Shown here in pieces: positions 13,560-28,714 of a stretch of 64,000 nt of DNA. Under the pieces are notes generated by a model, which did not search any database, was not told where the DNA came from, and saw only the letters and a program-made list of their open reading frames with translations. The position numbers and the translations under genes were made by a program. Numbering within the stretch: position 1 is the stretch's first letter; every line of letters begins with the position of its first letter. The DNA comes from Mycobacterium paraseoulense (GTDB lineage: Bacteria; Actinomycetota; Actinomycetes; Mycobacteriales; Mycobacteriaceae): NCBI RefSeq assembly GCF_010731655.1, contig NZ_AP022619.1:5208001-5272000 (forward strand). The letters run 5' to 3'.

Positions 13560-14696
13560 GTGATCGATTTTGGGCTGCTGCCGCCCGAAATCACCTCCGC
13601 GCTGATCCATGCCGGACCCGGCGCCTGGTCGATGATCGACGCCGCCGGTGCATGGCAAGAGCTCAGCGCCGAATTGGAGGGGGCCGCAAGCAGCTACGCC
13701 TCGGAGCTGGCGGCGCTGATGGCGACTTGGCGCGGCCCCTCCGCGCTGGCCATGGCGCAGGCCTTCGAGCCCTACCTCGCCTGGTTGCGCACCACCGCGG
13801 CGCAGTGCCAGGAGATCGCCGCCTCGGTGGAAACCGTCACGGCCTCATTCGAATTGACCCACTGGACGGTGGTGCATCCCGCCGTGGTGGCGGCCAACCG
13901 GGCGCGGTTGGCCGTGTTGCTGGCCACCAATTTCTTCGGGATCAACGCTCCGGCCATCGCCGAAACCGAAGCCGAGTACAACGCCATGTGGGTGAACAAC
14001 TCCACGGCGATGTACCGCTACGGCGCGACGTCGCTGAACGCCGTCCGGCTGTCCCAGTTCTCCCCGCCGCCGCAGGTTGCCAACCCCACGGCGGTCTCCA
14101 CCCAGGCCACGATCGTGCCCTCGGCGAACGCGCTGACCAGCTCCTCGACCACCGGCACGGGGTCGGTTCTCGACGCGCTCGGCGCCACCCCCTTCGACCC
14201 CAACAAGGGCTGGTTCGGGTATTTCAGCACCTGGGGCAATCAGACCATCGCGGGCGGACTTCCCGTCAACCTGCTCAGCTATATCGCGCAGGTCAATGCG
14301 GCCCAGGCGCTTCAGGGTGTCAGCAGCGACATCGGCCTGGGCCTCTCGGAGGGGTCGGCCGCCCTGGCATCGGCGGAGGCCAGGCTGGTCGGCGCGATCG
14401 GCTCCGGGGGGCTGGCGCCTCGAGGCGCGTTGGGTGTCTCGGTCCTGGTGGGCAAGCTGAGCATGCCGCCCGCGACGGTGGGGATGCTGCCCGGCGCCCA
14501 GCCGCCGGTGCAGCTGGCCTCGGCGGTCTCCGCGCTCCCGCCGGGGGCGGCGCAGCCACCGGGAGTGCCGGTGGCCCCGATCCGGCCGCCGCTGGGCGGC
14601 AAGGGGGGTCGTGGCGAAGGGCGGGACTACGACGACATCGAAATCGGCGCGGAGCTGCCCGGCACCGTCATGAAGCGGCCGCCGTCAGCGGGATAG
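13560..14696 (+). CDS. PPE family protein (copy 2 of a tandem pair)
   Basis: A 378-aa PPE protein starting VIDFGLLPPEITSALIHAGPG from GTG 13560, with the PPE domain to about residue 175. The C-terminal region is parallel to copy 1: both have FDPN.GWF.YFSTWGNQ, AQALQGV.SDIGLGLSEG, a GKL..PPA motif and a final acidic EDLEYGAELP or DDIEIGAELPG block. The start is placed at GTG because the protein then begins like other PPE proteins; the earlier open frame has no homology. The stop overlaps the end of the convergent P1B-ATPase gene by 12 bp. Cell-surface or secreted location is inferred from the family. Confidence 0.9.
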   Translation: MIDFGLLPPEITSALIHAGPGAWSMIDAAGAWQELSAELEGAASSYASELAALMATWRGPSALAMAQAFEPYLAWLRTTAAQCQEIAASVETVTASFELTHWTVVHPAVVAANRARLAVLLATNFFGINAPAIAETEAEYNAMWVNNSTAMYRYGATSLNAVRLSQFSPPPQVANPTAVSTQATIVPSANALTSSSTTGTGSVLDALGATPFDPNKGWFGYFSTWGNQTIAGGLPVNLLSYIAQVNAAQALQGVSSDIGLGLSEGSAALASAEARLVGAIGSGGLAPRGALGVSVLVGKLSMPPATVGMLPGAQPPVQLASAVSALPPGAAQPPGVPVAPIRPPLGGKGGRGEGRDYDDIEIGAELPGTVMKRPPSAG

Positions 14697-17057
14697 CTCG
14701 TGCCCCAGGGCCTGGCGTGGCTCCGGCGGTGGCGAACCGGGCTCGTCGTCGGCCAGCGTGAAGTAGCTTTCCTCCTCCTGCAGGAAATGCAGGCGTAGCA
14801 GGGCGTGCAGCCCATAAAGGCACGAGAGCAGGTCGTCGACCTGGTCGGCGCCGATCGCTCCGTTGCTTTGGGCCAACGCCAGGTGCGTGCCGATCCGGTC
14901 GGAGAGCCGCTGGATTTCCGCGTGGGTTCGGCTCATCGGGGCCGTCGCTTCGCTGGTGCCCAGCGGGTGGGCCAGCGCGGGATAGAGCTGGGTCTCCTCG
15001 GCGCGTTCGTGCGGGATGATCCGCTCGGTGAGCATGGTGTAGGCGTGGCGGATCCCCTCCATCGCCGGCTGGTCGGGCGCGGCGGCCAATTGGTCGGCGG
15101 CATCGCGCAACAACTCCACGGCGTCGCGCAGTTCGTCGTGTTCGGCGTCGAAACGCCGCAACATCTGTTCGGTCGTCGCGGGGAGGTCGACCTCGATGTC
15201 CGGATTGCCGCGCAGGGCGCGCAGTGCGTTGAGGATCACGGCGACGTCGATGCCCTCCTGCACCAGCGCACCGACGGCCGGAGGGAGCCACCCCACGGCG
15301 GCGACGGCCATCGCGGCCAGCGACAGGGTCATCCCGGCGACCGCGCTCTGCACGGCGATGCGCCGTGACCACCGGGCGATGTCCATCGCATCGGCGAGCC
15401 GCTCCAGCCGGTCGGTGGTCAACACGATGCCGGCGGCCTCCGAGGACGCGGTGGCGCCGCGGGCGCCCATCGCCACGCCGACGCTGGCCGCGGCCAACGC
15501 GGGTGCGTCGTTGACCCCGTCGCCGACCATCACCGTCACCGCGCGGTCCTTCTCGGCGCGCACGGCGGCCACCTTGTCCGCCGGACTCTGTTCCGCGTAC
15601 ACCTCGTCCAACCCCAGCACAGCACCGACCTCCCGGGCGGGCTCGGCGCGGTCTCCGGTGAGCATGACCAGCCGGTTCAGCCCCGCCTCGCGCAGCCGGC
15701 GCACGGTGCGCGGTGCGTGGCGGCGCAGCGGGTCACGCAGCAGCACCGCGCCCGTCGGCCGCTCGTCGACGCACACCCACGCGATGGCGGCGCCGTCGAG
15801 CAGGGCGCGGTTGACTACCGCGCGGGCCCATTCCGCGTTCGCGGTGTCCGACGAGAGCTTGCCGACGTGCACCCGCCGGCCGTCCAGGGTGGCGGTGACC
15901 CCCCGGCCGGGCTCCTCGACCACATCGGCGGGCAACGACAGCTGCAGGCCGCGGGCCCGCGCCGCGGTGACGATCGCCTCGGCCAGCACGTGCGGAGACA
16001 TCTGATCCACCGAGGCCGCCACCCGCAGGATCTCGATGGCGTCGCGGCCGGGCGCGGCGGCGACGTCGATGACGACCGGGCGCCCCATGGTCAGGGTGCC
16101 GGTCTTGTCCATCACCAAAGTGGTTGCGTGGCCGAGGTTTTCCAATGCACCGCCGCCGCGGATCACCACGCCGCGACGCGACGCCCGGGACAGCCCGGAC
16201 ACGATGGCGACCGGCGCGGCCAGCAACAGTGGGCACGGGGTCGCCACCACCAGCACCGCCACCGCCCGCACCGGCGAACCGCTGGCCAGCCATGCCGCGC
16301 CGGCCACCAACAGCGTCAACGGCAGGAACCACGCCGCGTACCGGTCGGCCAGCCGCACGACCGGCGCGTTCTCCGCTCCGGCCTCCGCGGCCAGGCGGAC
16401 GATCTGCGCGTAGGTGCTGTCCGCGGCGGTCGCGGTGGCCTGCATCTCGAAGGCGCTGCCCGCGTTGACCACCCCGCTACGCAGCGGTTCGCCGGCGGTG
16501 CGCTCCACCTGCAGGGGTTCGCCGGTCAGCACCGACTCGTCGAGCACCGCGACCGGGCTGGCCATGCGCCCGTCGACGGGCACCACTTCGCCCGGGCCGA
16601 CCACCAGCAAGTCGTCGACCGCCACGTCCGCCAGCGCGATGACGTCCACCGCCGACCCGACGCGGCGGCGGGCGAACCGCGGCGCGTGCTCCAGCAGCGC
16701 CCGCAGGTCGTGGGACGCGCGGCGTTCGGCCGCCGCCTCCAGGGCCCGCCCGCCGGCCAGCATCACCGCGATCAGCGCGCCCGCGAGATACTCGCCCACC
16801 AGCAGCGTGCCGACCAGCGACAACACCGCGATGAGATCAACCCCGAACCGGCCCCGGCGCAGCGCGGCGAGCACCCACACCACCGCGGGGACCACCGCCG
16901 TTACCGTGCCCGCGATCCAGCAGCCGTCGGCGACCCGCGGCGCACCGGCCAACCAGGCGATCCCGCCGGCGGTGAGGGCGACGGCGGTCAGCGCGGCAAG
17001 GACCGGTTCAACCCGCCGCGCGGACCACCTCCACCGCTCGAGCGCGGGCGCATCCAT
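14685..17057 (-). CDS. P1B-5-like heavy-metal ATPase with C-terminal hemerythrin domain
   Basis: The 790-aa product is a metal P-type ATPase: TGE actuator loop near 178, DKTGT near 317, GDGVND near 512. The transmembrane metal motif is TPCPL (273-277) rather than CPC, with QEGID near 600 in a late helix. TPC plus QExxD and a hemerythrin tail fit the P1B-5 group, linked in the literature to Ni/Fe transport. The tail (about 620-770) has EHDEL (H640), PHERAEE (H683/E687), RTHAE (H712) and LHFLQEEE (H757), the di-iron ligand pattern. The usual SxHP motif reads SPHVLAEA. It is divergent from the CBS protein, sharing a promoter region with a DosR-like box. Iron/oxygen-sensing control of efflux is inference. 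Confidence 0.85.
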   Translation of the reverse strand: MDAPALERWRWSARRVEPVLAALTAVALTAGGIAWLAGAPRVADGCWIAGTVTAVVPAVVWVLAALRRGRFGVDLIAVLSLVGTLLVGEYLAGALIAVMLAGGRALEAAAERRASHDLRALLEHAPRFARRRVGSAVDVIALADVAVDDLLVVGPGEVVPVDGRMASPVAVLDESVLTGEPLQVERTAGEPLRSGVVNAGSAFEMQATATAADSTYAQIVRLAAEAGAENAPVVRLADRYAAWFLPLTLLVAGAAWLASGSPVRAVAVLVVATPCPLLLAAPVAIVSGLSRASRRGVVIRGGGALENLGHATTLVMDKTGTLTMGRPVVIDVAAAPGRDAIEILRVAASVDQMSPHVLAEAIVTAARARGLQLSLPADVVEEPGRGVTATLDGRRVHVGKLSSDTANAEWARAVVNRALLDGAAIAWVCVDERPTGAVLLRDPLRRHAPRTVRRLREAGLNRLVMLTGDRAEPAREVGAVLGLDEVYAEQSPADKVAAVRAEKDRAVTVMVGDGVNDAPALAAASVGVAMGARGATASSEAAGIVLTTDRLERLADAMDIARWSRRIAVQSAVAGMTLSLAAMAVAAVGWLPPAVGALVQEGIDVAVILNALRALRGNPDIEVDLPATTEQMLRRFDAEHDELRDAVELLRDAADQLAAAPDQPAMEGIRHAYTMLTERIIPHERAEETQLYPALAHPLGTSEATAPMSRTHAEIQRLSDRIGTHLALAQSNGAIGADQVDDLLSCLYGLHALLRLHFLQEEESYFTLADDEPGSPPPEPRQALGHELSR

Positions 17058-17111
17058 GCTTGCCAGCCTTCCCTGGCGTCCCCGCGACGGCTAGGGCCGG
17101 ATGGACGCGGA

Positions 17112-17131
17112 TTGAGGACTCAGGTCACTAG
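17112..17131. promoter_or_regulatory. DosR-like palindrome between divergent ATPase and CBS genes
   Basis: TTGAGGACTCAGGTCACTAG agrees with the published DosR consensus (TTSGGGACTWWAGTCCCSAA) at 14 of 20 positions, including GGACT and GTC half-sites. It is central in the 107-bp region between the hemerythrin-ATPase (start 17057) and the CBS protein (start 17165), so one site could serve both. Agreement was scored by eye. Confidence 0.45.
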
Positions 17132-17164
17132 TACGGGGTGAGGTGTCCCCGCCAGCATGGTGAC

Positions 17165-17569
17165 GTGAGCGACAGCAATTGCGCCGGTTCCCTGCCGATC
17201 TCCACCATCACCGGTGACCCCGTGGCCCGCGTTCCCGCCGACGCCACGATCGCCGACGTGGCCAGGGCCATGGTGACCTGCGACGTGGGCGCGATCGCGG
17301 TCGGCGACGACGCGCTGCCCACCGCGCTGGTCAGTGAGCGCGACATCGTGCGGGCGGTGGCGGCCGGGCGAAATCCCGCGACGGCCCCGGTGTCCGCCGT
17401 GGCCAGCACCAAGCTGGTGTGGTGTGACGCCGACGCCACGGTCGACCAGGTCGGCGCCCGGATGATGGACCGCTACATCCGCCACGTACTGGTGGAGCGC
17501 GACGGCGCGCTGCTCGGCATCGTCTCGGCCCGCGACCTGCTGGGCGTGTACGCGGATTCCGATTCTTGA
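17165..17569 (+). CDS. Two-CBS-domain protein (Hrp1-like)
   Basis: A 134-aa protein made of two CBS repeats: residues about 10-65 (GDPVARVPADATIADVARAM, SERDIVRAVA) and 75-134 (WCDADATVDQVGARMMDRY, VSARDLLGVY). Stand-alone CBS pairs bind adenosyl ligands and often work as energy or redox sensors. Rv2626c/Hrp1 is the hypoxia-induced mycobacterial example, and the resemblance in size and layout is clear, but orthology is not shown. GTG 17165 is used. The stop overlaps the TTG start of the next gene, so it is coupled to the FMN protein. A DosR-like box lies upstream. Confidence 0.82.
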   Translation: MSDSNCAGSLPISTITGDPVARVPADATIADVARAMVTCDVGAIAVGDDALPTALVSERDIVRAVAAGRNPATAPVSAVASTKLVWCDADATVDQVGARMMDRYIRHVLVERDGALLGIVSARDLLGVYADSDS

Positions 17570-19122
17570 GGTCGCGAGCGGTGGCCGCGGTGGTCGGCGG
17601 GGGCCTGGCCGGGCTGACGGGATGGGACCTGCTGCAGCGCCGCCACACCATCCTGCGCAACTTCCCGATCATCGGGCACCTGCGGTTCCTGCTGGAAGCG
17701 GTGGGCCCGGAGCTGCGCCAGTACATCGTCACCGACAACGACGCGGAACGGCCGTTCAGCCGCGACCAGCGTCGCTGGGTGTACACGTCGTCGAAGCTGG
17801 CCAACCGCTACTTCGGTTTCGGCACCGACAACGACCTGGAACGGGTGCACAACTATCCCATCATCAAGCACGCGGCGTTCCCCGTCGCCGCGCCGGCCGG
17901 CGAACCCGAGCATCCGGACCCGGCCGTGCCGTTGCCGGCGGCGAAGGTCCTCGGCGGCGCGCGGGGCCGCGCCCGGGCCTTCCGCCCGTCGTCGCTGGTC
18001 AACATCTCCGGCATGAGCTTCGGCGCGCTCGGTGGCGCGGCCACCACCGCCCTGAACAAGGGCGCGGGTATCGCCGGCGCGCTGCACACCACCGGCGAGG
18101 GCGGCGTGTCGCCGTATCACCTGGCCGGCGGCGACCTGGTCTGGCAGATCGGCACCGGCTACTTCGGCTGCCGCGACGACGACGGCAGCTTCAGCCTGCC
18201 CCGCCTGATCGACCGGGTGGCGGCCACTCCGGCGATCCGGGCCATCGAGATCAAGCTGAGCCAGGGCGCCAAGCCCGGCCTGGGCGGCGTGCTGCCGGGG
18301 GCCAAGGTCACCCCCGAGATCGCCGCCATCCGCGGCGTGCCGGCCGGCGTGGACTGCAAGAGCCCCGCCGGGCACTCCGCCTTCGCCGACGTCGACGGGC
18401 TGCTGGAGCTGGTGGAGACCATCGCCGCCGAGACGGGCCTGCCGGTGGGCATCAAGTCGGCGGTCGGACAGGGCCGGTTCTGGTGCGACCTGGCCGCGCG
18501 GATGGCCCGCACCGGCACCGGCGTCGACTTCGTCACCGTCGACGGCGGCGAGGGCGGCACCGGCGCGGCCCCACTGGTGTTCACCGACCACGTCGCCCTG
18601 CCGTTCAAGTGGGCCCTCCCGCGGGTCTACCGGGCCTTCGCCGAGCACGGGCTGCACCACGATGTGGTGTTCATCGGGTCGGGCAAGCTCGGCATCCCGG
18701 AGAACGCGCTGCTGGCGCTGGCCACCGGCTGCGACATGATCAACGTCGGCCGGACGGCCATGTTCGCCATCGGCTGCATTCAGGCCCAGCGCTGCCACAC
18801 CGGCCGCTGCCCCTCGGGCGTGGCCACGCAGTCGCCGTGGCTGCAGCACGGCCTCGACCCGGCCCTGAAGTCGGTGCGCTGCGCCAACTATCTCGCCACC
18901 CTGCGCTTCGAGCTGCTGCAGCTGGCCCGCACCTGCGGCTACGTCCATCCGGCGCTGGTGCCGCTGGAAGCCATCGAACTTCTCGACATCGACATGAAGA
19001 CGGTGCGAGTCGACGAGTTGGTGGACTACCCGCCCGACTGGGGCCTGCCCGGCCCGGCCGACATCGAGGCGATCACGGCCGTGATGTCCACCGGCGCAGG
19101 ACGAGTTTGCGGATCTCGCTGA
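17566..19122 (+). CDS. FMN-binding glutamate-synthase-like protein
   Basis: The 518-aa product has an N-terminal membrane-proximal segment and the GltB central FMN-binding barrel (about 140-480). Typical pieces are SFGALGGAATTALNKGA, LSQGAKPGLGG, GGEGGTGAAPLVF and the 3Fe-4S motif CIQAQRCHTGRCPSG. The glutamine amidotransferase domain of true glutamate synthase is absent, so the reaction is unknown; an FMN/Fe-S redox enzyme is the safe statement. The TTG start overlaps the CBS gene stop; GTG 17581 is an alternative. Its last 50 bp overlap the end of the convergent P2A-type gene. Confidence 0.85.
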   Translation: MRSRAVAAVVGGGLAGLTGWDLLQRRHTILRNFPIIGHLRFLLEAVGPELRQYIVTDNDAERPFSRDQRRWVYTSSKLANRYFGFGTDNDLERVHNYPIIKHAAFPVAAPAGEPEHPDPAVPLPAAKVLGGARGRARAFRPSSLVNISGMSFGALGGAATTALNKGAGIAGALHTTGEGGVSPYHLAGGDLVWQIGTGYFGCRDDDGSFSLPRLIDRVAATPAIRAIEIKLSQGAKPGLGGVLPGAKVTPEIAAIRGVPAGVDCKSPAGHSAFADVDGLLELVETIAAETGLPVGIKSAVGQGRFWCDLAARMARTGTGVDFVTVDGGEGGTGAAPLVFTDHVALPFKWALPRVYRAFAEHGLHHDVVFIGSGKLGIPENALLALATGCDMINVGRTAMFAIGCIQAQRCHTGRCPSGVATQSPWLQHGLDPALKSVRCANYLATLRFELLQLARTCGYVHPALVPLEAIELLDIDMKTVRVDELVDYPPDWGLPGPADIEAITAVMSTGAGRVCGSR

Positions 19123-21733
19123 CCCACAGGACCGTGCTGGCCATCGCGATGCACACCAGCCACTGGCTCAGCGAGAGGGGCGTGGTGGTGAAGGCCGTGT
19201 TGAGCACGGGCAGCTGAACCACGGCTACCTGCAGCAGCGCCGACAACCCGATCGCCGCCCACAGCCACCGGTTGGCGAAGAACCGGTGAAAAGCGGACCG
19301 GGTCTCCGAGCGGGCGTTGATGCAGTTGATCAGCTGGGCGATCACCAGCACGGTGAAGCCGGCGGTGCGGGCGGTGTCCAGGGAGGACGGCAGGGGCCCG
19401 CCGGGCGCGTAGAGCCGGATCGTGAAGAGCGTGGCGGCCGCCACCGCCGCGCCGATCACGATGATGTTGTTCCACATCCGCGCGTCGATCACCCGGTCCG
19501 AGACCGAGCGCGGCGGCCGGCTCATCACCTCTTCGGTCTGCGGGTCCACGCCCAGCGCCAGGGCCGGCGCGCCGTCGGTCAGCAGGTTGATCCACAGGAT
19601 CTGCGTGGCCAGCAGCGGCAGCGCGACGGTACCGCCCTGCGACAGGCCGACGGTCCCGGCCAGCACCACGCCGAAGAAGACCGTGAAGATTTCCCCCATG
19701 TTGGAGGACAGCAGGTAGCGCAGCGACTTCTTGATGTTGGCGAAGATGCCCCGGCCCTCACGAATCGCCTGGACGATCGTCGCGAAGTTGTCGTCGGCGA
19801 GGATCATGTTCGCCGCCTCCCTGGCGACGTCGGTGCCGCTGCGGCCCATGGCGATGCCGATGTCGGCCGACTTCAGCGCGGGCGCGTCGTTGATCCCCTC
19901 CCCGGTGACGGCGACGATCTCATGGTCGGCGTGCAGCGCGTCGATGATGCGCTGCTTGTCCGCCGGATCGACCTGGGTGTACTGCGAGTGCAGGCGCACG
20001 GTTTCGCGCAGCTGCTCGTCGTCCAGCGTCGCGAGCTGAGCGCCGGACACGGCCGACTCGCCGTCTTCGATGCCCAGCTTCCGGGCGATGCGCGCCGCCA
20101 CCCGGGGATGGTCGCCGGTGATCATCACGACCCGGACCCCGGCGCGGCGCGCCTCGGCGATCGCCGCCGCCGCCGCCGGCCGGGGCGGATCGGTGATCCC
20201 CACCATGCCCAGGTACACCAGGTGCCCGTCGGACCGGCAGGCGACCGCCACCGTATGCAGGGCATCGAACGCCAGCCGCTCGGCATCGCTTCGGATCGTG
20301 GCCCGGGCCGGGTCGTCGAGCGGAGCAAGCCGATCACCGGCCTGCAGGTGCGTGCACCGGCCGAGCAGCTCGTCGGGGTCGCCCGTCGTCACGTCGGCCG
20401 GAGTCGGCCGGGGCCCGTCGCCGAGCTTCCCGCGGGCGACCACGAAGGCCGCGTCGACCGGATCGCCGCGGGCCGTCCACCGGCCGTCCTGCACGTCGAG
20501 GGCGGCATCACGGCCGGCGGCGGCGCCGGCGTCGAGCACCAGCGCGGCCTGGCGCCACAGGTCGTCGCCCTCGCCCAGCGGCGCGCCGCCATGCTCGAGG
20601 CGACCCTCGGGCCGATACCCGGCGCCGGTGACCCTCACCTCCCCGAGGAGGGTGATCACCCGCACGATTGTCATCTCCCCGGTCGTGAGCGTGCCCGTCT
20701 TGCCCGAGCACACCACCGACGCCGAGCCCAGGGTCTCGGCTGAGGACAGCTCCTTGACGACGGCATTCAGACCGGCCATCCGCCGCATGCCCAGGGCGAG
20801 CACGACCGACATGATCGCGGGCAGGCCTTCCGGCACCGCCGCCACGGCCAGCGAGACGCCCAGCAGCGCCGCCGTCACCGCGTCGTGGGCGCTGTGAATG
20901 CCGAATACCACGACGATGGTCGCGATCACCACCACGGCGATCACGAGCACGGCGATCCCCAGCAGCCGGCTGGCGCGGGCCACCTCACGCTGCAGCGGCG
21001 TCGGCTCGTGGTCGGCGGTGCGGACCAGGCCGGCGATCTGACCGGTCTGGGTCGCCATCGCCGTCGCGGTCACCACCGCCCGCCCGACGCCCTTGGTGAC
21101 GGCGGTGCCCTTGAACACCATGTCCGCCCGGTCCCCGAGCGCCGCCGGCTCCGCCAGCGTCCGGGCATCCTTGAGGACGGGTTCGCTCAGGCCCGTCAGC
21201 GCCGCCTCCGACACCTCCAGCCCCGCGGACGAGAGCAGCCTGGCATCGGCCGCCACGGCGTCACCCTCGGTGAGCAGCAGCACGTCGCCGGGCACCACCT
21301 CGCTCGCCGGGACGGCGCGACGCGCCCCGTCGCGAACGACCGTCGCCGAGGTCGCGGCCATCCGCGCCAACGCGCCGACCGCGCGCTCGGCCCGCGCCTC
21401 CTGCGCGTAACCCAGGATCGCGTTCAGGACGAGGATGACGGCGATCACCACCGCGTCGACCGGCCAGTCGCCGGCCCCCTCGACGACCCAGACCGCGAGC
21501 GAGGCGACCAGCGCGGCGAGCAGCAGGTAGATCAGGGGGCTGCGGAACTGCGCCAGCAGCCTTCGGTAGGCCGGCGCGGGTGGAACGGTGTCGATATCGT
21601 TCGCGCCCACCACGGCGAGCCGGCGGGCGGCTTCCGCCGTGGTCAGTCCCGCTTCCGGGTCGGTGCGCAGCCTGGCGACGACCGCTGTGACGTCGAGGAG
21701 CGCGGGGTCGGGGTCGAGCAGTGCGGCGTCCAC
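19073..21733 (-). CDS. P2A (CtpF/SERCA-type) P-type ATPase lacking catalytic residues
   Basis: This intact 886-aa frame has the full SERCA-like layout: cation ATPase N-terminus, ten expected helices, PEGLP (301-305) and NLLTDGAPAL, the cation-site helices. Catalytic positions are changed. The phosphorylated Asp of DKTGT is Gly (SGKTGT, residue 344, codon GGC). The TGES Glu is Leu (TGLS, residue 182, codon CTG). The hinge GDGxND is GEGIND (residue 612). The N-domain also skips the usual KGAPE segment between ARGKLGD and DELLGRC. Phosphoenzyme chemistry is therefore predicted to be lost while the membrane core remains. GTG 21733 lies 17 bp after the DUF5994 gene. It may be a channel, sensor or partner subunit; that is inference. 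Confidence 0.88.
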   Translation of the reverse strand: MDAALLDPDPALLDVTAVVARLRTDPEAGLTTAEAARRLAVVGANDIDTVPPAPAYRRLLAQFRSPLIYLLLAALVASLAVWVVEGAGDWPVDAVVIAVILVLNAILGYAQEARAERAVGALARMAATSATVVRDGARRAVPASEVVPGDVLLLTEGDAVAADARLLSSAGLEVSEAALTGLSEPVLKDARTLAEPAALGDRADMVFKGTAVTKGVGRAVVTATAMATQTGQIAGLVRTADHEPTPLQREVARASRLLGIAVLVIAVVVIATIVVVFGIHSAHDAVTAALLGVSLAVAAVPEGLPAIMSVVLALGMRRMAGLNAVVKELSSAETLGSASVVCSGKTGTLTTGEMTIVRVITLLGEVRVTGAGYRPEGRLEHGGAPLGEGDDLWRQAALVLDAGAAAGRDAALDVQDGRWTARGDPVDAAFVVARGKLGDGPRPTPADVTTGDPDELLGRCTHLQAGDRLAPLDDPARATIRSDAERLAFDALHTVAVACRSDGHLVYLGMVGITDPPRPAAAAAIAEARRAGVRVVMITGDHPRVAARIARKLGIEDGESAVSGAQLATLDDEQLRETVRLHSQYTQVDPADKQRIIDALHADHEIVAVTGEGINDAPALKSADIGIAMGRSGTDVAREAANMILADDNFATIVQAIREGRGIFANIKKSLRYLLSSNMGEIFTVFFGVVLAGTVGLSQGGTVALPLLATQILWINLLTDGAPALALGVDPQTEEVMSRPPRSVSDRVIDARMWNNIIVIGAAVAAATLFTIRLYAPGGPLPSSLDTARTAGFTVLVIAQLINCINARSETRSAFHRFFANRWLWAAIGLSALLQVAVVQLPVLNTAFTTTPLSLSQWLVCIAMASTVLWVSEIRKLVLRRWTSRP

Positions 21734-21750
21734 CGAGCGCGCTCAGCCGT

Positions 21751-22371
21751 TCAGTGGTGGCTCGCCGGCAGCGGCGACTGGGCTTGCCTGCGCGACTCCA
21801 CCATCCGGTTGCGCACGATGTGTTCGACCAGGATCGGCACGAAGGTCTGGACCGGGGCGTTGACGAACTGCTCGGCGGCCTCCTCCGACCAGCGCTTGAT
21901 CTGGGCGGTCCGCCGCTCGTCGCCGAGGCCTTCGTGCCGGGCCAGCTTGTCGGCCACGTCGGCCACGGATCGCGCCACGTTCGAACGGCTCTGCGGCAAA
22001 GCTCCGCCGTCGGGGGGCATCCGCGCGTCTTCCAGCGCTTGACGGGCGACCTCTTCGCCGGCGTCCGGACGGATGACGTGCAGTGTGAGGTGGTGGCCGT
22101 CCTCCCCGATCAGGATGACGCTGGACGGCTCGTCGCTGGTGAAGGGCAGCAGTTCGACCGTCTTGCCGCCGATCTGCACCAGCGGAGGGGTCTCTTGCCA
22201 GCCGTTGCGGCGGTAGCCGACCATCACGACCGGGCCGAGCCGCTCGGACACCGACGTCAGCAGTTCCGGCAACTCGTCGACCAGGCTTGTCGTTCGCGGC
22301 CACCAGGCACCGTCGATGTGCTCCGATACGGACCGATAGGGCTTGAGCTGTAAGCGATTATCCATGTGCAC
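21751..22371 (-). CDS. DUF5994-family protein with C-terminal three-helix region
   Basis: A 206-aa soluble protein. The N-terminal part (about 10-105) has DGAWWPRTTSLVDELPELL and GYRRNGWQETPPLV, the Trp-rich pattern of DUF5994 proteins of mycobacteria. The C-terminal part (about 125-190) is helical (ADVADKLARHEG ... EEAAEQFVNAPVQTFVPILVEHIVRNRM). This resembles small three-helix dimerisation domains found in dormancy-related mycobacterial proteins. GTG 22371 or ATG 22365 can start it. It is 3 bp from the ctpI stop and 17 bp from the P2A-type gene, so the three form an operon. The function is unknown. Confidence 0.75.
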   Translation of the reverse strand: MHMDNRLQLKPYRSVSEHIDGAWWPRTTSLVDELPELLTSVSERLGPVVMVGYRRNGWQETPPLVQIGGKTVELLPFTSDEPSSVILIGEDGHHLTLHVIRPDAGEEVARQALEDARMPPDGGALPQSRSNVARSVADVADKLARHEGLGDERRTAQIKRWSEEAAEQFVNAPVQTFVPILVEHIVRNRMVESRRQAQSPLPASHH

Positions 22372-22374
22372 GCC

Positions 22375-25300
22375 TCAATCGTGGTCGGCGTGATCGGAAC
22401 CCGGCAGGGTCCGCCGCACCGAAGGGATGGGACTTTCTGCTCTTTCCGATCCGGTCGCCGGCTCGACCCCGAGCCAGCGCCGCTGCATGCCCTGCGACGC
22501 GCGCAGCAGCAGGCCGGGTGCGACGGCGGACAGGGTGCTGGCCGCCGACGCGGCCAACAGGCCCTGACCCCAGCCCAACGGGTCCAGCGGGGTGCAGCCG
22601 AACAGCTGGCTGAGCCCGGGGGTGCTGATCACCACCGCCAGCGCCCCCAGCGAGCCGATCGACGTCAGCACCACCAGCGGGGCGCGGGAGTCGACCAGGG
22701 TCTGGGTGAGTTGCGCGCCCACCAACGCGACCAGCGCGACCGTCCCGGCGCGGCGCTGCGTGCCGGTCACGCTGGCCATCGCCCAGCCCGCCGTGGCGCC
22801 GACGGTGGTGGCAGCGCCGCGGATACCGATCGCCCGCCACATCGCCGCCTCGTCGCGGTCGACGCCGGCGGTGCTGGTCTGGGGGCTGACCGCCAGTGCG
22901 GCCGCCGGCAGCGCGTCGGTGAGCATGTTGACCAGCAGCATCTGCCGGGCGTTGAGCACCGAACGTCCGGTCAGGATGGTGGTGATCAGGGCGAAGCACA
23001 CCTCGCCGAGGTTGCCGCCCAGCAGCATCGACACCGCGGATTGCACGCGGCGCCACAGCTGCTGACCCTCGTCGAGGGCGTCGAGCAGCGCCTCGATCCG
23101 TTCGTCGAGCAGCACCACGTCGGCCGCGGTGCGGGCCGCGTCGCTGCCGCGCGCCGCCACGCCGATGCCCACGCTGGCCGCCCGGATCGCGGCGGCGTCG
23201 TTGACGCCGTCGCCGACCATCGCGGTCACCAGCCCGGCCCGCTCGAGGGTCTGCACGACGTCGATCTTGTGCTCCGGCGTCATCCGCGCGAACACCACCC
23301 GCGACGCGGCCGCGGCGGCGCGCCCGTCGGCGGACAGCGCCTCCCACTCGCTCCCGGTCATCACCTGGTCGGGCGTGACGTCGAGCCCCAACTCCCGGGC
23401 GATCACCGCCGCGGTCGCCGGGTGGTCACCGGTGATCAGCCGGACGCCGATGCCACGCTCGCCGAGCTCCTTCAGCAACGCAGGGGCGGCGGCCCGCGGG
23501 GTGTCGGCCAGCCCGAGCAGGCCGATCGGGGTGAGCCCGGCGGTGCACAGCGCCTCCAGGTGGTCGGGATCCTTGGCAGCGGCGGCCGCTTCGTCCGGGC
23601 TGAGTTCGCGCTCGGCCACCGCCAGTACCCGAAATCCGTTGGCCGCCATCTCGTCGACCCGTTGCGTCAGGGGGTGGTCGTCGTGCAGCAACGCCGACGC
23701 GAGCACCTCCGGTGAGCCCTTGATGCTCAGCCGGGTGCCGACCAGCGCGGCCGCGAACGGGCGGCCGGACTGGAACGGCAGGAACGCGTCACGGGTCAGC
23801 CGCTGCGGCTTCGAGCCGTCGCCGCGCAGCTCGGGATCGTCGGCGGCCCGGTGTATCGCATCGTCGGTGGCGTGGTCGACCCGGTGGGTGTGCCTGGCAT
23901 AGCTGGTGCTCAACGCCGCGTCCAGCACCGCGCCGGGGGTGTAGCCCGTCAGCGGGTGCACCGCCTTGACCTTCAGCCGGTTTTCGCTGAGCGTGCCGGT
24001 CTTGTCGAAGCACACCACGTCCAGCCGGGCCAGCGCCTCCACCGAGTGGGGGTTGCGGATCAGCACCGATTGTCCGGTGAGCCGGCGGGCGGCGGACAGC
24101 TGGGCCAGCGTCGCCACCAGCGGCAGGCCCTCCGGAATGGCGGCGACGATCAGGGTGACCGCGCTGGACGCCGCCTCGCGCAGCCCGGTGCCCCGCGCCA
24201 CGCTGAGCAGTCCCACCAGTGCGCCGCCGGCCACGCTGAACGGCAGGGCCCGACGGGTGATGTGCCGCAACTGCCGCTGCAGCCCGATCTCCTGCAGCTT
24301 CCTCGGCGCCATCGCCAGCGCCCGGCGCGACTCGGACCGTGATCCCACGGCGGTGACCACGGCCACCGCCGTCCCGGCGACCACCGTGGTGCCGGCGTAG
24401 AGCATGCAGTTCCGTTCGGCCAGCGGCGCGCCCGGCGTGGGCTCGGTCTGCTTGGCCACCGGCAGCGACTCGCCGGTCAGCGTCGACTCGTCGACCTCGA
24501 CGTTCGACGCGTGCAGCAGCCGGGCGTCCGCGGGGACCACCTCGTCGGCGTGGACTTCGATGATGTCGCCCAGCCGCAGCCGCTTGGTCGGCACCTTCTC
24601 GCGGCGCTTGGCCTCCAGCGCGCCCACCCGTCGCCTGGCGGGCGGATCCTGCACGGCCAGTAAGCGATTCAGCGTGCGTTCGGCGTGCAGCTGCTGCTCG
24701 GCCGACAGGGCGGCATTGACCAACAGCACGCTTCCCACCAGCACCGCGTCCAGCGGCGAGCCGAGCAGGGCGCTGGCCGCCGCGCCGGTGGCCAGCAGCG
24801 GGGTGATGGGGTCCGCCAGGTCACCGCGCATCTCCTCGGCGAAGTCGCGGACGGCTCCCCACGACGCCGCGGTCGCGTCGTGCAGCGCGCGCACCGCGGG
24901 CACCTGCTGCCACCACGCGGGCGCCGCCTCGCGGTCCTCCTCGGTCGGGCGGGGCAGCAGCCGCTGCACCTCGGCGACCGGCAACGCGTGCCAGTCGTGG
25001 CTGGTTTCGGGCTCCGGCAGCGGATCCCGCAGGGTTTTGATGGCGGCGCGGTAGCCGAACCACAGGCTGGCGACCATACCGACGTTGACCGAGGCCGAGC
25101 TGCGCCCGGGCACACCGGGAATCAGCATCAACGCGCCGATCGCGGATGCCGAGGCGGACAGCCGGACGGCGCCCTCGGTGGCGGCGCGCGCGGCGGGCAG
25201 CGCGTGCAGCACACGCCAGGCGCCGGTCAGGTCGTCCGCGATCACGTCGGCGGCCCACGGCGGGGCGTGCCCGGGCCGCAGCAGGCCGATCGTGACGTCG

Positions 25301-26850
25301 GAGCGGTGCGCGGCCCGCATGTCGGACGTGGTCAGCAGCGCCACGGTGTTCCCGGCCGCCTTCAATTCCGCCACGGCCGCCGCCACGGCGTGGTCGATCG
25401 ACCCATCCGCGGGATAGAGCTGGTCGAAACCCTGTGCCAGGGAACGCAATCCGTCGTCGTCGAGGGAGTACACGCGCGGTTGCGACCGCCGCGCTTCGGT
25501 GAGCACCGCCGCCGCGAGCGGGTCGCGGACCGGGCTGATGAGCGCCTCGCCGACGTCGCCGGCCCCGGGGATGTCGGCCAGCCGGTGCCATCCCGGCTCC
25601 AGGCCGTCATCGTCGAGCGCGGCCCGCACCGCCTCCCAGGCGTGGGCGCGAGCCGAATTCTCCACTCCGAGAACACGACTGACCGTCAGTTCGTCGGTGT
25701 ACAGCGCTCGCGGGTCGATCATGATCGCGTCAACCCGGTCGAGGGTCCGCAACACGCGGGGGCGCAGCACCAGCGCGTCGTGGCGGCTGGTCAGGCCGCG
25801 GTTCATCGTGCAACCGAACGCTTCCCGCACCGTCCGCAACGGCTTGGGGACGGCGGCCAGCGCGGCGGCGCCGGCCGCGTCGGGGTTGCGGGTGAGCAGC
25901 CCGACCGCCGCGGCGGCGCCGATGCCGGCCAAGCCGGCGCGGTTGGCGTACCGTTCCGCGGGCCCGTCCGGCGGGGCCGGGTTGCCGATGGGTGCCAACG
26001 CCGCACCGTCGGGCACCGGCCGGTCGGCCAACCCGGGCTCGTGCCGGACCCACGCCAGCCTGCCGTTCCACGCCTCGGCGGCCAGCATGGTGCGGGTGAC
26101 GGCCTCGGCGGCCGCCGCCGTCGGCGACAGCGTCAAGGCGGCGGAGGCGGCGTTGACGATGCCGAACAACACGTCGGCGCCCTCCGGCCCGAGGCGTCGC
26201 TCCACCTCTCGTCGCACCCGCGGCAGGTGGTCGGCCACCGTCGTCGGCACGGCCACCAGGTCGGGGAGCCGCGGCAGCCGCAGCAGGCTGCCGGTCAGCG
26301 AAAGGCCGAACCCCACGGAGGCGGCTGTGGCCGCCACCATCCGGCCCATCAAGACCGCGTCGTCGCCCGGCAGGCTGGCCGGCAGCGACCTGCCCGGGCC
26401 CCTTCCGTGGCGTCGTTCCGCATGGGCGACGGCCCGGCACAGCTCGGCCGCCGAGGGTCCGTCGTCGGCCACGGTGACCACCGCCCGCCCGAGGGTGCCG
26501 TTCAGATAGGCCCGCCGCACGCCGGGCATCGCCCGGACGGCCGCCAGCACGTCGGCGGCGATCGCCGCCCCGTGCTCGCCGTCGAGCCCGCGCACCTCGA
26601 TCCAGCGCCTCGGCCCGTTGTCGCTGACCCGCCGGGCCGGTGGGCCGCCCGCGGCCTCCAGCATCGCGCCCGCCGCCGCCCGGGTCAGCGCGGGTACGTC
26701 CGGGGTGGCGTGCGCCAGCGACTTGCCCAGGCTCGCCGCGACATGGCCACCCAACAGGGCGGTGCCGGCGGCGATCTCGGTGCCCAGCACGGCGACGCGC
26801 AATGGCGCCGTCAGCAAGCCCAGGCCGGGCAGGCCCCGTCGTGTGCTCAC
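22375..26850 (-). CDS. ctpI: CtpI-like giant P-type cation ATPase
   Basis: A 1491-aa P-type ATPase with an approximately 700-residue N-terminal extension before the ATPase core. The core is intact: TGESLPV actuator loop, DKTGT with Asp at residue 949, KGSPEVLASA as the nucleotide-site motif, GDGVNDAAAI hinge and a C-terminal six-helix block. The extension holds HMA-like repeats near the N-terminus (VRAMPGVRRAYLNGTLGRAVV) and a degenerate second ATPase-like region (DAIMIDPRALYTDEL, LLTTSDMRAAHR), as in M. tuberculosis CtpI. The transported ion is unknown. GTG 26850 follows a GGAGA sequence. It heads the ctpI-DUF5994-P2A operon, divergent from phoU. Confidence 0.88.
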   Translation of the reverse strand: MSTRRGLPGLGLLTAPLRVAVLGTEIAAGTALLGGHVAASLGKSLAHATPDVPALTRAAAGAMLEAAGGPPARRVSDNGPRRWIEVRGLDGEHGAAIAADVLAAVRAMPGVRRAYLNGTLGRAVVTVADDGPSAAELCRAVAHAERRHGRGPGRSLPASLPGDDAVLMGRMVAATAASVGFGLSLTGSLLRLPRLPDLVAVPTTVADHLPRVRREVERRLGPEGADVLFGIVNAASAALTLSPTAAAAEAVTRTMLAAEAWNGRLAWVRHEPGLADRPVPDGAALAPIGNPAPPDGPAERYANRAGLAGIGAAAAVGLLTRNPDAAGAAALAAVPKPLRTVREAFGCTMNRGLTSRHDALVLRPRVLRTLDRVDAIMIDPRALYTDELTVSRVLGVENSARAHAWEAVRAALDDDGLEPGWHRLADIPGAGDVGEALISPVRDPLAAAVLTEARRSQPRVYSLDDDGLRSLAQGFDQLYPADGSIDHAVAAAVAELKAAGNTVALLTTSDMRAAHRSDVTIGLLRPGHAPPWAADVIADDLTGAWRVLHALPAARAATEGAVRLSASASAIGALMLIPGVPGRSSASVNVGMVASLWFGYRAAIKTLRDPLPEPETSHDWHALPVAEVQRLLPRPTEEDREAAPAWWQQVPAVRALHDATAASWGAVRDFAEEMRGDLADPITPLLATGAAASALLGSPLDAVLVGSVLLVNAALSAEQQLHAERTLNRLLAVQDPPARRRVGALEAKRREKVPTKRLRLGDIIEVHADEVVPADARLLHASNVEVDESTLTGESLPVAKQTEPTPGAPLAERNCMLYAGTTVVAGTAVAVVTAVGSRSESRRALAMAPRKLQEIGLQRQLRHITRRALPFSVAGGALVGLLSVARGTGLREAASSAVTLIVAAIPEGLPLVATLAQLSAARRLTGQSVLIRNPHSVEALARLDVVCFDKTGTLSENRLKVKAVHPLTGYTPGAVLDAALSTSYARHTHRVDHATDDAIHRAADDPELRGDGSKPQRLTRDAFLPFQSGRPFAAALVGTRLSIKGSPEVLASALLHDDHPLTQRVDEMAANGFRVLAVAERELSPDEAAAAAKDPDHLEALCTAGLTPIGLLGLADTPRAAAPALLKELGERGIGVRLITGDHPATAAVIARELGLDVTPDQVMTGSEWEALSADGRAAAAASRVVFARMTPEHKIDVVQTLERAGLVTAMVGDGVNDAAAIRAASVGIGVAARGSDAARTAADVVLLDERIEALLDALDEGQQLWRRVQSAVSMLLGGNLGEVCFALITTILTGRSVLNARQMLLVNMLTDALPAAALAVSPQTSTAGVDRDEAAMWRAIGIRGAATTVGATAGWAMASVTGTQRRAGTVALVALVGAQLTQTLVDSRAPLVVLTSIGSLGALAVVISTPGLSQLFGCTPLDPLGWGQGLLAASAASTLSAVAPGLLLRASQGMQRRWLGVEPATGSERAESPIPSVRRTLPGSDHADHD

Positions 26851-26961
26851 GTGTTCTCCGGGCTCGGGTGGGTTGACGACCAGTGTCGGCTATGCCGCAA
26901 GGGTTACAGCGGCAGCTTAACGGGCGGTGAAGAGCGCGGGAAAAGTCGTTCAGGCCCTTTT

Positions 26962-26981
26962 CGGGTGCCTTTTGTCCCTTG
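26962..26981. promoter_or_regulatory. Weak DosR-like site between ctpI and phoU
   Basis: CGGGTGCCTTTTGTCCCTTG shares 12 of 20 positions with the DosR consensus, with the GTCCC half-site exact and GGG in the other half. It lies in the 163-bp divergent region between ctpI (start 26850) and phoU (start 27014). Alone it would be unconvincing. A better box at the island's other divergent promoter raises its interest. Confidence 0.3.
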
Positions 26982-27013
26982 TCAAAAGCGCTCGCATTGG
27001 CCACCGTTGCGCT

Positions 27014-27679
27014 ATGCGAACCGCTTATCACCACCAGCTGGCCGAGTTGACCGTCCAGCTCGGCGAGATGTGCGGCCTGGCCAACGAAGCCATGCGGCGC
27101 GCAACCCAAGCTTTATTGGAAGCCGACCTCGACGCCGCCGAACGCGTCATCCGGGAGCATGACCGGTTGGTGGAGATGCGGGCCCGGGCGGAACGAGAAG
27201 CGTTCGCCCTGCTGGCGCTGCAACAACCGGTTGCCGGTGAGTTGCGGGCGATTTTCAGCGCCATCCAGATCATCGCCGACATCGAACGCATGGGGGCGTT
27301 GGCGGTGCACATCGCCAAGATCGCCCGGCGGGAGCACCCGAACCGGATACTGCCCGACGACCTCCGCGCGTGCTTCGCCGACATGGCCAAGGTGGCCGTC
27401 GCGCTGGGCGAAAACGCAAAACAGGTGCTGATTACCCGCGACCCCGAGCGGGCCGCCCGGCTCCGCGAACAAGACGACGCGATGGACGAGCTGTACGGGA
27501 ACTTGTTCACCGCGCTGCTGGATGACGACTGGCGGGACAACATTCCCGTCGCCGTGGACGCGGCGTTACTCGGGCGTTTCTACGAGCGCTTTGCCGACCA
27601 TGCCGTGGAAATCGGCCGGCGCATCGTCTTCGTGGTCAGCGGCGATCTCCCCGCGCCGGACGAGATCACGACCTACTGA
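27014..27679 (+). CDS. phoU: PhoU-family phosphate signalling protein
   Basis: The 221-aa product starts [19 protein letters not shown] and has two three-helix PhoU repeats. The metal-cluster acidic motifs appear as [14 protein letters not shown] and later [13 protein letters not shown], with [16 protein letters not shown] and [18 protein letters not shown], the classical PhoU E/DxxxD pattern. Mycobacterial PhoY1/PhoY2 couple phosphate uptake to SenX3-RegX3 signalling and persister formation. The phoY1 position next to glpD2 is empty in this genome, so this gene may be a relocated or additional PhoU. It leads the phoU-corA-mgtA unit; corA follows after 36 bp. ATG 27014 is chosen over 26927 by homology. 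Confidence 0.88.
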
Positions 27680-27715
27680 ACGGCGCTGGTGGGGCCGGGC
27701 TGAGAAGATTGCGCC

Positions 27716-28714
27716 GTGCAGGGCACATCGAACATCCAGGGCCGCGTCTGGCGCCACGGTAAGCCGCAGGAAGACTTCACGTTCGACGACATCTCGGACT
27801 ACCTGCGCGAGCCCGACACCCTCGTCTGGGTGGATCTGTGCGCCCCCGACCATGACGCCTTGTGCGATCTGGCGGCCGAGCTCGGCCTGAACACGTGGGC
27901 CGTCGAGGACGCCGTCGCGGCGGCCGAACGGGTCAAGGCCACCGCGTACGACACGCACACCTTCTTCACCGTCTACGCCGTTCTGGTCGCGGCGGACGCC
28001 GGCGACGAGCCGCGGCGGATGCTGTCCATGCACCGGATTTCGGCGTTCGTGCTTCCCCGCGGGCTGATCACGGTGCGCCTGACGAAGGACTTCGACATGG
28101 CTCAGGTCACGCGGCGCTGGGAGGAGATCGGTGCCCAGCAGTACGGTGTGGGCGCCCTGGTGCACGGGTTGCTCGATGTCGTCGTCGACAGTCACTTCGC
28201 CGCGGTGGAGGCCCTCGACGACTGCGTCGAAGACATCGAGGACGAGCTGTTCGACGGCACGCCCCGGCAGGCCGGCTTCCAGCGCCGCACCTTCCAGATG
28301 AGACGCGACCTGGTGGCGCTGCGGCGGGTGGCGCTGCCCATGCGGGAGGTCGTCAACTCGATCCAGCACCACCGCCACGAGGTCGGCACGGCCCGCGAAC
28401 TGGACCCGCTGTATGCCGACCTCTACGACCACGTGCTTCGCGTGTCGGAGTGGACGGAGTCGTTGCGGGACATGGTCACCACCATCTTCGAAACCAACCT
28501 GTCCCTGCAGGACGCCCGGCTGAACACCATCATGAAGAAGCTGACGGGATGGGCGGCCATCATCGCCGTCCCCACCGCGATCACGGGCTTCTACGGCCAG
28601 AACGTCCCCTATCCGGGCTTCGGCCACCTCGCCGGATTCCTTGCCAGCACCACCTTGATATTCGTTCTGATGGTGGTCATCTACGTGATGTTCAAACGGC
28701 GGGACTGGCTATGA
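27716..28714 (+). CDS. corA: CorA-type Mg2+/divalent cation channel
   Basis: The 332-aa product has a large cytoplasmic N-terminal domain (to about 265) and two C-terminal helices (about 275-293 and 305-325), the CorA topology, ending in basic KRRDWL. The signature YGMN at the end of the first helix reads YGQNVP (ITGFYGQNVPYPGF), a change at the middle position of the filter motif. CorA-like proteins are pentameric passive channels for Mg2+ or other divalent cations. It starts at GTG 27716, 36 bp after phoU, and its stop overlaps the ATG of the MgtA-like gene (ATGA), tying a passive channel to an active pump. Confidence 0.88.
   Translation: MQGTSNIQGRVWRHGKPQEDFTFDDISDYLREPDTLVWVDLCAPDHDALCDLAAELGLNTWAVEDAVAAAERVKATAYDTHTFFTVYAVLVAADAGDEPRRMLSMHRISAFVLPRGLITVRLTKDFDMAQVTRRWEEIGAQQYGVGALVHGLLDVVVDSHFAAVEALDDCVEDIEDELFDGTPRQAGFQRRTFQMRRDLVALRRVALPMREVVNSIQHHRHEVGTARELDPLYADLYDHVLRVSEWTESLRDMVTTIFETNLSLQDARLNTIMKKLTGWAAIIAVPTAITGFYGQNVPYPGFGHLAGFLASTTLIFVLMVVIYVMFKRRDWL

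What the first reader, a model, noticed from the sequence alone, without database searches (positions are those of the whole stretch)
19073..21733. A full-length P2A-type P-type ATPase with three catalytic positions and the nucleotide loop destroyed
Seen directly: DKTGT reads GKTGT (Gly344), TGES reads TGLS (Leu182) and GDGxND reads GEGxND (Glu612), and the KGAPE segment of the N domain is missing, yet the 886-codon frame is open and the cation-site helices (PEGLP, NLLTDG) are kept. Known for the family: the Asp carries the phosphate, TGES Glu drives dephosphorylation and the GDG Asp helps bind Mg2+. Inference: a pseudo-pump retained as a channel, sensor or regulatory partner of CtpI or the DUF5994 protein. 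Several independent hits in frame argue against a sequencing error and against simple decay.
Basis: partly seen in the sequence, partly recalled or inferred. Interest (0 to 1): 0.88.

Follow-up and report, generated by a model that had tools for sequence, protein, structure and literature searches.

The report
Conserved dead calcium pump in mycobacteria
Some mycobacteria keep a full-length relative of calcium pumps that has lost the parts needed to burn ATP yet is still protected by evolution, which suggests that a dead pump has been given a new job.

Summary
The gene lies on the MINUS strand (19073-21733, 886 codons, open). GKTGT, TGLS and GEGIND are there; KGAPE is eroded to TGDPD and about 30 residues before it are deleted. 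It is neither a sequencing error nor, on the evidence, a decaying copy: of 396 genomes of the genus searched, 19 carry the GKTGT/GEG form. In 80 distinct main-clade proteins Gly344 and Glu612 are invariant, while the TGES Glu is free (14/80). Six membrane cation residues and seven phosphate-pocket residues checked are 80/80. Median dN/dS is 0.23 (no pair reaches 1), somewhat above the intact CtpI-like neighbour (0.19); the N domain is relaxed (0.39). Early-branching members with Gly344 still have GDG or a full N domain, so losing the Asp came first; a single origin is favoured, not shown. In all 19 the order is CtpI-DUF5994-pump on one strand, but CtpI-DUF5994 also exists without the pump. Best reading: a P2A pseudo-pump, no longer ATP-driven, kept for its cation-binding membrane domain and emptied P-domain pocket, probably as a non-pumping cation-responsive accessory; the job is inferred. 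New variant of a known kind.

The parts
19073..21733 (-). P2A-type pseudo-pump, 886 aa, GTG start; G344 for the phosphorylated Asp, L182 in TGES, E612 in GDGxND, Q587, N domain shortened
20702..20704 (-). codon of Gly344 (GGC; Asp codon in intact relatives)
   Evidence: position computed from the gene start 21733; codon
21751..22371 (-). DUF5994 protein, 206 aa, with a C-terminal three-helix-bundle dimerisation domain; its stop codon ends 17 bases before the pump start
22375..26850 (-). CtpI-like P-type ATPase, 1491 aa, catalytic motifs intact; first gene of the apparent operon
26965..26978 (.). DosR-box-like element GGGACAAAAGGCAC upstream of the CtpI-like gene; found at the same aligned place in 17 of 17 assessable pump-bearing loci, weak in any single sequence
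17566..19122 (+). convergent FMN-binding glutamate-synthase-like gene; its end overlaps the end of the pump gene

Best explanation
The gene encodes a P2A (SERCA/PMR1-like) pseudo-pump: a complete P-type ATPase fold that cannot form the aspartyl-phosphate and very probably no longer handles ATP, kept under purifying selection in a clade of mycobacteria. Shown by sequence: the acceptor Asp is replaced by an invariant Gly, the first GDG Asp by an invariant Glu, the TGES Glu position is free, Arg587 is lost and the nucleotide domain is cut down, while the cation-site residues checked and the rest of the HAD phosphate pocket stay invariant. Inferred: the protein still binds a divalent cation in the membrane and switches conformation with it (or with a ligand held non-covalently in the emptied pocket), and acts as a non-pumping, cation-responsive accessory encoded with the active CtpI-like ATPase and the DUF5994 protein, tuning their activity. 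That it is a conserved pseudo-pump: about 0.93. That its job is regulatory/accessory to the operon rather than a passive conductance: about 0.4.
For: G344 80/80, E612 80/80 and E182 only 14/80 in distinct main-clade sequences; E302, N678, E681, N716, T719, D720 and K345, T346, T539, G540, D541, K593, D616 all 80/80. The TGES column needs at least 15 changes on the 88-row tree, whereas Gly344 does not change within the main clade (61 tips, 6.2 substitutions per site in total). NG86 dN/dS median 0.234 (55 near pairs, range 0.169-0.318, none >=1) against 0.194 for the adjacent intact CtpI-like ATPase; P-domain pieces 0.139 and 0.152, M3-M4 0.132, M5-M10 0.179, N domain 0.390. Frames open over the whole match in 22 pump genes. 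Order CtpI-DUF5994-pump on one strand in 19 of 19 genomes (CtpI cut by the contig end in G001); gaps here of 3 and 17 bases. The Asp loss is the oldest step: P0065, P0070, P0155 and G384 have Gly344 with GDG, P0065, P0070 and G384 also keep TGES, and 7 of 7 early members keep the N-domain stretch.
Against: CtpI-DUF5994 occurs without the pump in G158, G057, G058, G236 and G324, so it is no obligate subunit. The other 15 of 20 fetched DUF5994 loci show no CtpI orthologue beside DUF5994. Neighbouring genes (P1B ATPase, CBS, FMN, PhoU, CorA) are syntenic too, so linkage may be inherited passively. The pump evolves a little faster than CtpI in near pairs (median ratio 1.23; 0.99 over all 171 pairs). 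DUF5994 is split between two frames in G062 and has a stop inside the match in G051, both pump carriers. Conserved pocket residues could be structural.
Confidence: 0.5

Rival explanations
1. Passive conductance: without the ATP-driven gate the retained membrane domain works as a leak, channel or gradient-driven carrier for Ca2+ or another cation.
For: Cation-site residues 80/80; membrane parts among the most constrained (dN/dS 0.13-0.18).
Against: A passive pore would not obviously need the HAD pocket kept 80/80; nothing measured.
Confidence: 0.22
2. Ligand sensor: with the Asp gone, the Lys/Thr/Mg-site pocket binds phosphate, Mg2+ or another ligand non-covalently and passes its occupancy to the membrane cation site.
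For: K345, T346, T539, G540, D541, K593 and D616 80/80 although phosphorylation cannot occur; Gly344 and Glu612 invariant; P-domain dN/dS 0.14-0.15; PhoU and CorA genes lie next to the operon.
Against: Those residues may only hold the fold together; no ligand known.
Confidence: 0.13
3. Slow decay of a dispensable pump.
For: N domain eroded and relaxed (0.39), the TGES position drifting; no match at E <= 1e-170 in 374 of 396 genomes; dN/dS slightly above that of CtpI in near pairs.
Against: dN/dS 0.23 overall and 0.13-0.18 in the P and membrane parts; Gly344/Glu612 never change in the main clade over 6.2 substitutions per site; open frames in 22 genes.
Confidence: 0.06
4. Still an active ATPase using another acceptor residue.
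For: The rest of the DKTGT loop is intact.
Against: No substitute acidic residue in the loop CSGKTGTLT; R587 and most of the nucleotide-binding stretch are lost as well.
Confidence: 0.03

Closest known systems
LMCA1 (lmo0841) and SPCA1/SERCA, P2A Ca2+-ATPases with solved structures
   Same: Closest chains in the PDB by sequence (9euq_A, lmo0841, E 4.5e-138; 6zhf_A 4.4e-138; then ATPase type 2C member 1 and SERCA); same A, P and membrane domains and cation-site motifs
   Different: Asp, TGES Glu, GDG Asp, Arg587 and most of the nucleotide-binding stretch are lost here
CtpF, Ca2+ P2A ATPase of M. tuberculosis (PMC9180918, PMC7525011; search listing and abstract starts only)
   Same: Same pump class, same genus
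   Different: Reported as a Ca2+ transporter; the pump here cannot form a phosphoenzyme. I did not compare the CtpF sequence itself
Intact sister pumps in mycobacteria (G037, G185, P0060, P0063, P0064, P0066, P0067, P0076, P0078)
   Same: About 65% identical, same architecture; in G185 also next to a CtpI-like gene
   Different: DKTGT, TGES and GDG intact; in G185 CtpI is divergent and no DUF5994 lies beside it
Regulatory dead paralogues such as trypanosome AdoMetDC prozyme (PMC5201418, abstract start in listing only)
   Same: Catalytically dead paralogue kept beside an active enzyme
   Different: Different fold; its effect on the active partner is studied there, only inferred here
Plasmodium GC-alpha P4-ATPase domain (PMC7858053, passages read)
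   Same: P-type ATPase fold thought to serve signalling
   Different: The authors find the Asp conserved and could not obtain parasites with it substituted, so it is not a pseudo-pump
Truncated SERCA1 (S1T; PMC6953121, listing only; its leak role and its structure recalled)
   Same: Non-pumping SERCA derivative with a proposed leak role
   Different: A truncated isoform, not a full-length conserved gene

Membership tests
P2A Ca2+-ATPase (TIGR01116 / TIGR01522) | N-terminal, actuator, HAD and C-terminal cation-ATPase domains in order | tested here: met
   PF00690, PF00122, PF00702 and PF00689 above gathering scores
P2A Ca2+-ATPase (TIGR01116 / TIGR01522) | NCBIfam equivalog score | tested here: not met
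   585.1 against 703.4 and 580.8 against 798.3 bits; general P-type model TIGR01494 met, 271.6 against 62.3
P2A Ca2+-ATPase (TIGR01116 / TIGR01522) | Asp of DKTGT | tested here: not met
   Gly344 in 80/80 main-clade and 7/7 early members; Asp in 130/130 intact relatives
P2A Ca2+-ATPase (TIGR01116 / TIGR01522) | TGES Glu, GDG Asp and nucleotide-binding stretch of the N domain | tested here: not met
   L182, E612, deletion after 443, TGDPD for KGAPE
P2A Ca2+-ATPase (TIGR01116 / TIGR01522) | Membrane cation-site residues (M4 Glu, M5 Asn/Glu, M6 Asn/Thr/Asp; assignment recalled) | tested here: met
   E302, N678, E681, N716, T719, D720 80/80
P2A Ca2+-ATPase (TIGR01116 / TIGR01522) | ATP-driven cation transport | not testable with these tools
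   needs the purified protein
Pseudoenzyme | Fold kept, essential catalytic residue lost | tested here: met
   domains by family models, residue loss; no structure model could be made
Pseudoenzyme | Conserved under purifying selection in the inactive state | tested here: met
   median dN/dS 0.234, 0 of 55 near and 0 of 171 pairs >= 1
Pseudoenzyme | Demonstrated non-catalytic function | not testable with these tools
   no experiment here
Obligate subunit of the CtpI-like ATPase | CtpI never occurs without it | tested here: not met
   CtpI-DUF5994 without pump in 5 of 20 fetched loci; 14 of 34 genomes with listed CtpI hits >=73% have no pump match at E <= 1e-170

The most novel reading that the evidence does not exclude
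A P-type ATPase fold rebuilt into an ATP-free receptor: losing the acceptor Asp left a Lys/Thr/Mg pocket that holds a ligand such as phosphate non-covalently, and its occupancy gates or reports the still intact membrane cation site, so the old pump now senses instead of transports and sets the activity of the CtpI-like ATPase encoded with it.
Probability: 0.14. Interest if true: 0.87.

Novelty: new variant of a known kind. Interest (0 to 1): 0.63.

Why it matters
P-type ATPases are defined by the phosphorylated Asp. A clade that lost it first, kept the replacement Gly without exception in every sequence seen, then mostly shed the nucleotide-binding stretch while keeping cation site and phosphate pocket, is a natural experiment on what the fold can do without ATP. 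No title or abstract start in five searches of the held papers describes a P-type pseudo-pump (4 of 4, 10 of 10, none, 12 of 27 and 2 of 2 hits listed); subscription literature is not covered. It also bears on annotation: 'cation-translocating P-type ATPase' is misleading for these records.

Tried and rejected
Sequencing error: rejected, the altered motifs recur in 19 genomes. Simple decay: disfavoured by dN/dS and by invariant Gly344/Glu612. Origin of Gly344: in the first tree (88 rows = 65 Gly and 23 of 55 intact, LG+G4) P0065 sat among intact rows and starred branches forced at least two changes; in the second (37 of 217 rows chosen by me, with outgroups and a mixture model) all 19 Gly rows form one side of a branch (support 79, not starred). 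The shared Gln587 (7/7 early members) favours one origin; it is not shown. GDG to GEG: GDG and GE rows are mixed in the early lineage (P0070 and G384 D; P0079, P0082, P0166 E), so repeated change or reversal is open. I first took G384 for intact (note) and corrected it after (note). DosR-box scan: at or below chance in the window alone (8 found, 14.8 expected); per locus the best score was reached by 0 to 174 of 200 shuffles among the 17 loci; only its recurrence at one aligned place makes it worth noting. CtpI dN/dS over all 19 genomes (median 0.264; 18 of 171 pairs >= 1) is spoiled by G076, where my naive reading frame breaks; about the first 300 residues of G100 are off too, which touches 10 of the 55 near pairs, so I use the near-group median. 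Plasmid search: none of the 20 listed records (of 44) matched the pump part of the query. Single-codon check: GGC at Gly344 in all 19 main-clade genomes, GGT in G384; 4 of 42 invariant Gly columns have a single codon, so codon diversity adds little. Domain borders for dN/dS were set by eye. SERCA residue meanings and equivalences (including Arg587 as a nucleotide contact) are recalled, not from a call.
Full report
What is there. The gene at 19073-21733 lies on the minus strand, starts with GTG and codes for 886 aa without a stop. Pfam finds the four domains of a cation ATPase in order. By sequence the nearest solved chains are Ca2+-ATPases, lmo0841 (LMCA1) first, then ATPase 2C1 and SERCA; NCBIfam scores are highest for the SERCA-type and PMR1-type models but below their cut-offs. 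The KGAPE motif is eroded to TGDPD, and about 30 columns before it, including invariant P, F and R of intact relatives, are missing.

It is a conserved form. A search of 396 genomes of the genus gave 22 with a match at E <= 1e-170: 19 carry GKTGT and GEG, one (G384) carries GKTGT with GDG, and two (G037, G185) are intact. In the other P-type ATPase loci compared, 98 of 98 have the Asp, the TGES Glu and the GDG Asp (117 loci, the 18 of this pump and L005, which overlaps it, set aside). The protein search scored only the 7989 candidates sharing most words and listed the best 120, and searches likewise, so rarer forms may be missed.

What stayed and what went. In 80 distinct main-clade proteins (some from one species, differing in length) Gly344 and Glu612 are 80/80, Gln587 is 79/80 (Arg in 130/130 intact), and the TGES Glu is only 14/80. 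The cation-site residues E302, N678, E681, N716, T719 and D720 and the pocket residues K345, T346, T539, G540, D541, K593 and D616 are 80/80. Of 288 columns at least 97% conserved in intact relatives, 38 are kept in under 90% of the main clade. The N-domain stretch before KGAPE is short in 70 of 80, intermediate in 3 and nearly full in 7. So the membrane site and the frame of the phosphate pocket are protected, while the nucleotide side is not.

Order of events. With the motif columns and the N domain left out, 37 proteins gave a tree in which all 19 Gly344 rows are one side of a branch (SH-aLRT 79); an earlier tree with a simpler model had P0065 among intact rows and forced two changes. Either way the early rows show the order: P0065, P0155, P0070 and G384 have Gly344 but GDG; P0065, P0070 and G384 still have TGES (P0155 lacks that part of the protein); and 7 of 7 early members keep the N-domain stretch at full length, though its invariant Phe is Trp or Tyr in 6 of the 7. 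So the acceptor Asp was lost before the other catalytic residues, together with Arg587 (7/7 early members have Gln). On the 88-row tree the TGES column needs at least 15 changes, while Gly344 does not change in the main clade (61 tips, 6.2 substitutions per site in total).

Selection. Median NG86 dN/dS over 55 pairs of near genomes is 0.234 for the pump, 0.194 for the CtpI-like ATPase, 0.168 for the P1B ATPase, 0.233 for PhoU (45 pairs) and 0.351 for DUF5994. No pump pair reaches 1 in 55 or in 171; the median pump/CtpI ratio is 1.23 in near pairs and 0.99 over all. By part: P domain 0.139 and 0.152, M3-M4 0.132, M5-M10 0.179, M1-M2 0.174, A domain 0.205, N domain 0.390, N-terminus 0.339. The intact pair G037/G185 gives 0.212. 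NG86 corrects poorly for codon bias and saturation, but the controls share the species pairs. The CtpI value over all 19 genomes is unreliable (see Tried and rejected).

Context. In all 19 genomes the order is CtpI-like ATPase, DUF5994, pump, on one strand (CtpI runs off the contig in G001); gaps here are 3 and 17 bases. CtpI shows DKTGT, TGES, GDGxND and KG[SA]P in 21 of 21 sequences read. In G384 and G185 CtpI is adjacent but divergent, without DUF5994 beside it; in G037 it is elsewhere. Against an obligate link, 5 of 20 DUF5994 loci fetched (G158, G057, G058, G236, G324) have CtpI-DUF5994 without the pump, with 35 to 81 bases between the matched ends of DUF5994 and the FMN gene; the other 15 show no CtpI orthologue beside DUF5994, and one of them (G142) holds an intact pump at 52% identity some 7 kb away. 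Of 34 genomes with a listed CtpI hit of at least 73% identity, 17 carry the main-clade pump, 1 the early form, 2 an intact one and 14 none at E <= 1e-170 (a capped list). G031 and G076 carry the pump but fall outside those 34, their matches there being weaker. DUF5994 homologues occur in 78 of 392 genomes, so they are far commoner than the pump. Upstream of CtpI a DosR-box-like element is found at the same aligned place in 17 of 17 assessable loci (14 with at least 10 of 14 positions), but not in G185 or G384; G001 (contig end) and G100 (start misjudged) could not be assessed. In the window alone such matches are at chance level.

How it most likely works. Shown: no acceptor Asp, altered Mg site, truncated nucleotide domain, conserved cation site and pocket, purifying selection, shared gene order. 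Established for the family (recalled): without the Asp there is no phosphoenzyme and no active transport. Inferred: the protein still takes up a cation in the membrane and serves as a non-pumping accessory of the operon; a passive conductance and a phosphate/Mg sensor are the main rivals. The invariance of the pocket in a protein that cannot be phosphorylated is the least expected fact and the reason for the novel reading.

Literature. Those for pseudo or inactive P-type ATPases listed nothing describing one. I read passages of one paper (PMC7858053), where the Asp is conserved; all other papers named were seen only in search listings.

Noticed in passing
14685-17057 (-): P1B-type ATPase with a C-terminal hemerythrin domain (PF01814, residues 633-769) in the same gene island.
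   Followed up: partly
14685-31341: Four P-type ATPases (P1B-hemerythrin, pseudo-pump, CtpI-like, and one on the + strand ending at 31341) plus CorA and PhoU within about 17 kb; parts of this island recur in the loci.
   Followed up: partly
26850-27014: DosR-box-like palindrome in the CtpI/PhoU divergent promoter, recurring across pump-bearing genomes although at chance level in the window alone.
   Followed up: partly
L160, L163, L162, L154, L152: Pump absent between DUF5994 and the FMN gene in five genomes, with 35 to 81 bases between the matched ends, so the pump behaves as an optional module.
   Followed up: partly
G237 pump, residue 587: One main-clade member has Arg (CGT) at the position that is Gln in the other 79.
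   Followed up: no
21751-22371 (-) and its homologues: DUF5994 homologues in 78 of 392 genomes; several matches carry in-frame stops (G203, G047, G383 and others) and the G062 copy is in two frames. A search for the word DUF5994 found no held paper.
   Followed up: no
P0070, P0079, P0082, P0155, P0166, G384: In six of seven early Gly344 members the Phe that is invariant in the N-domain stretch of intact relatives is Trp or Tyr, an early hint of altered nucleotide binding.
   Followed up: no
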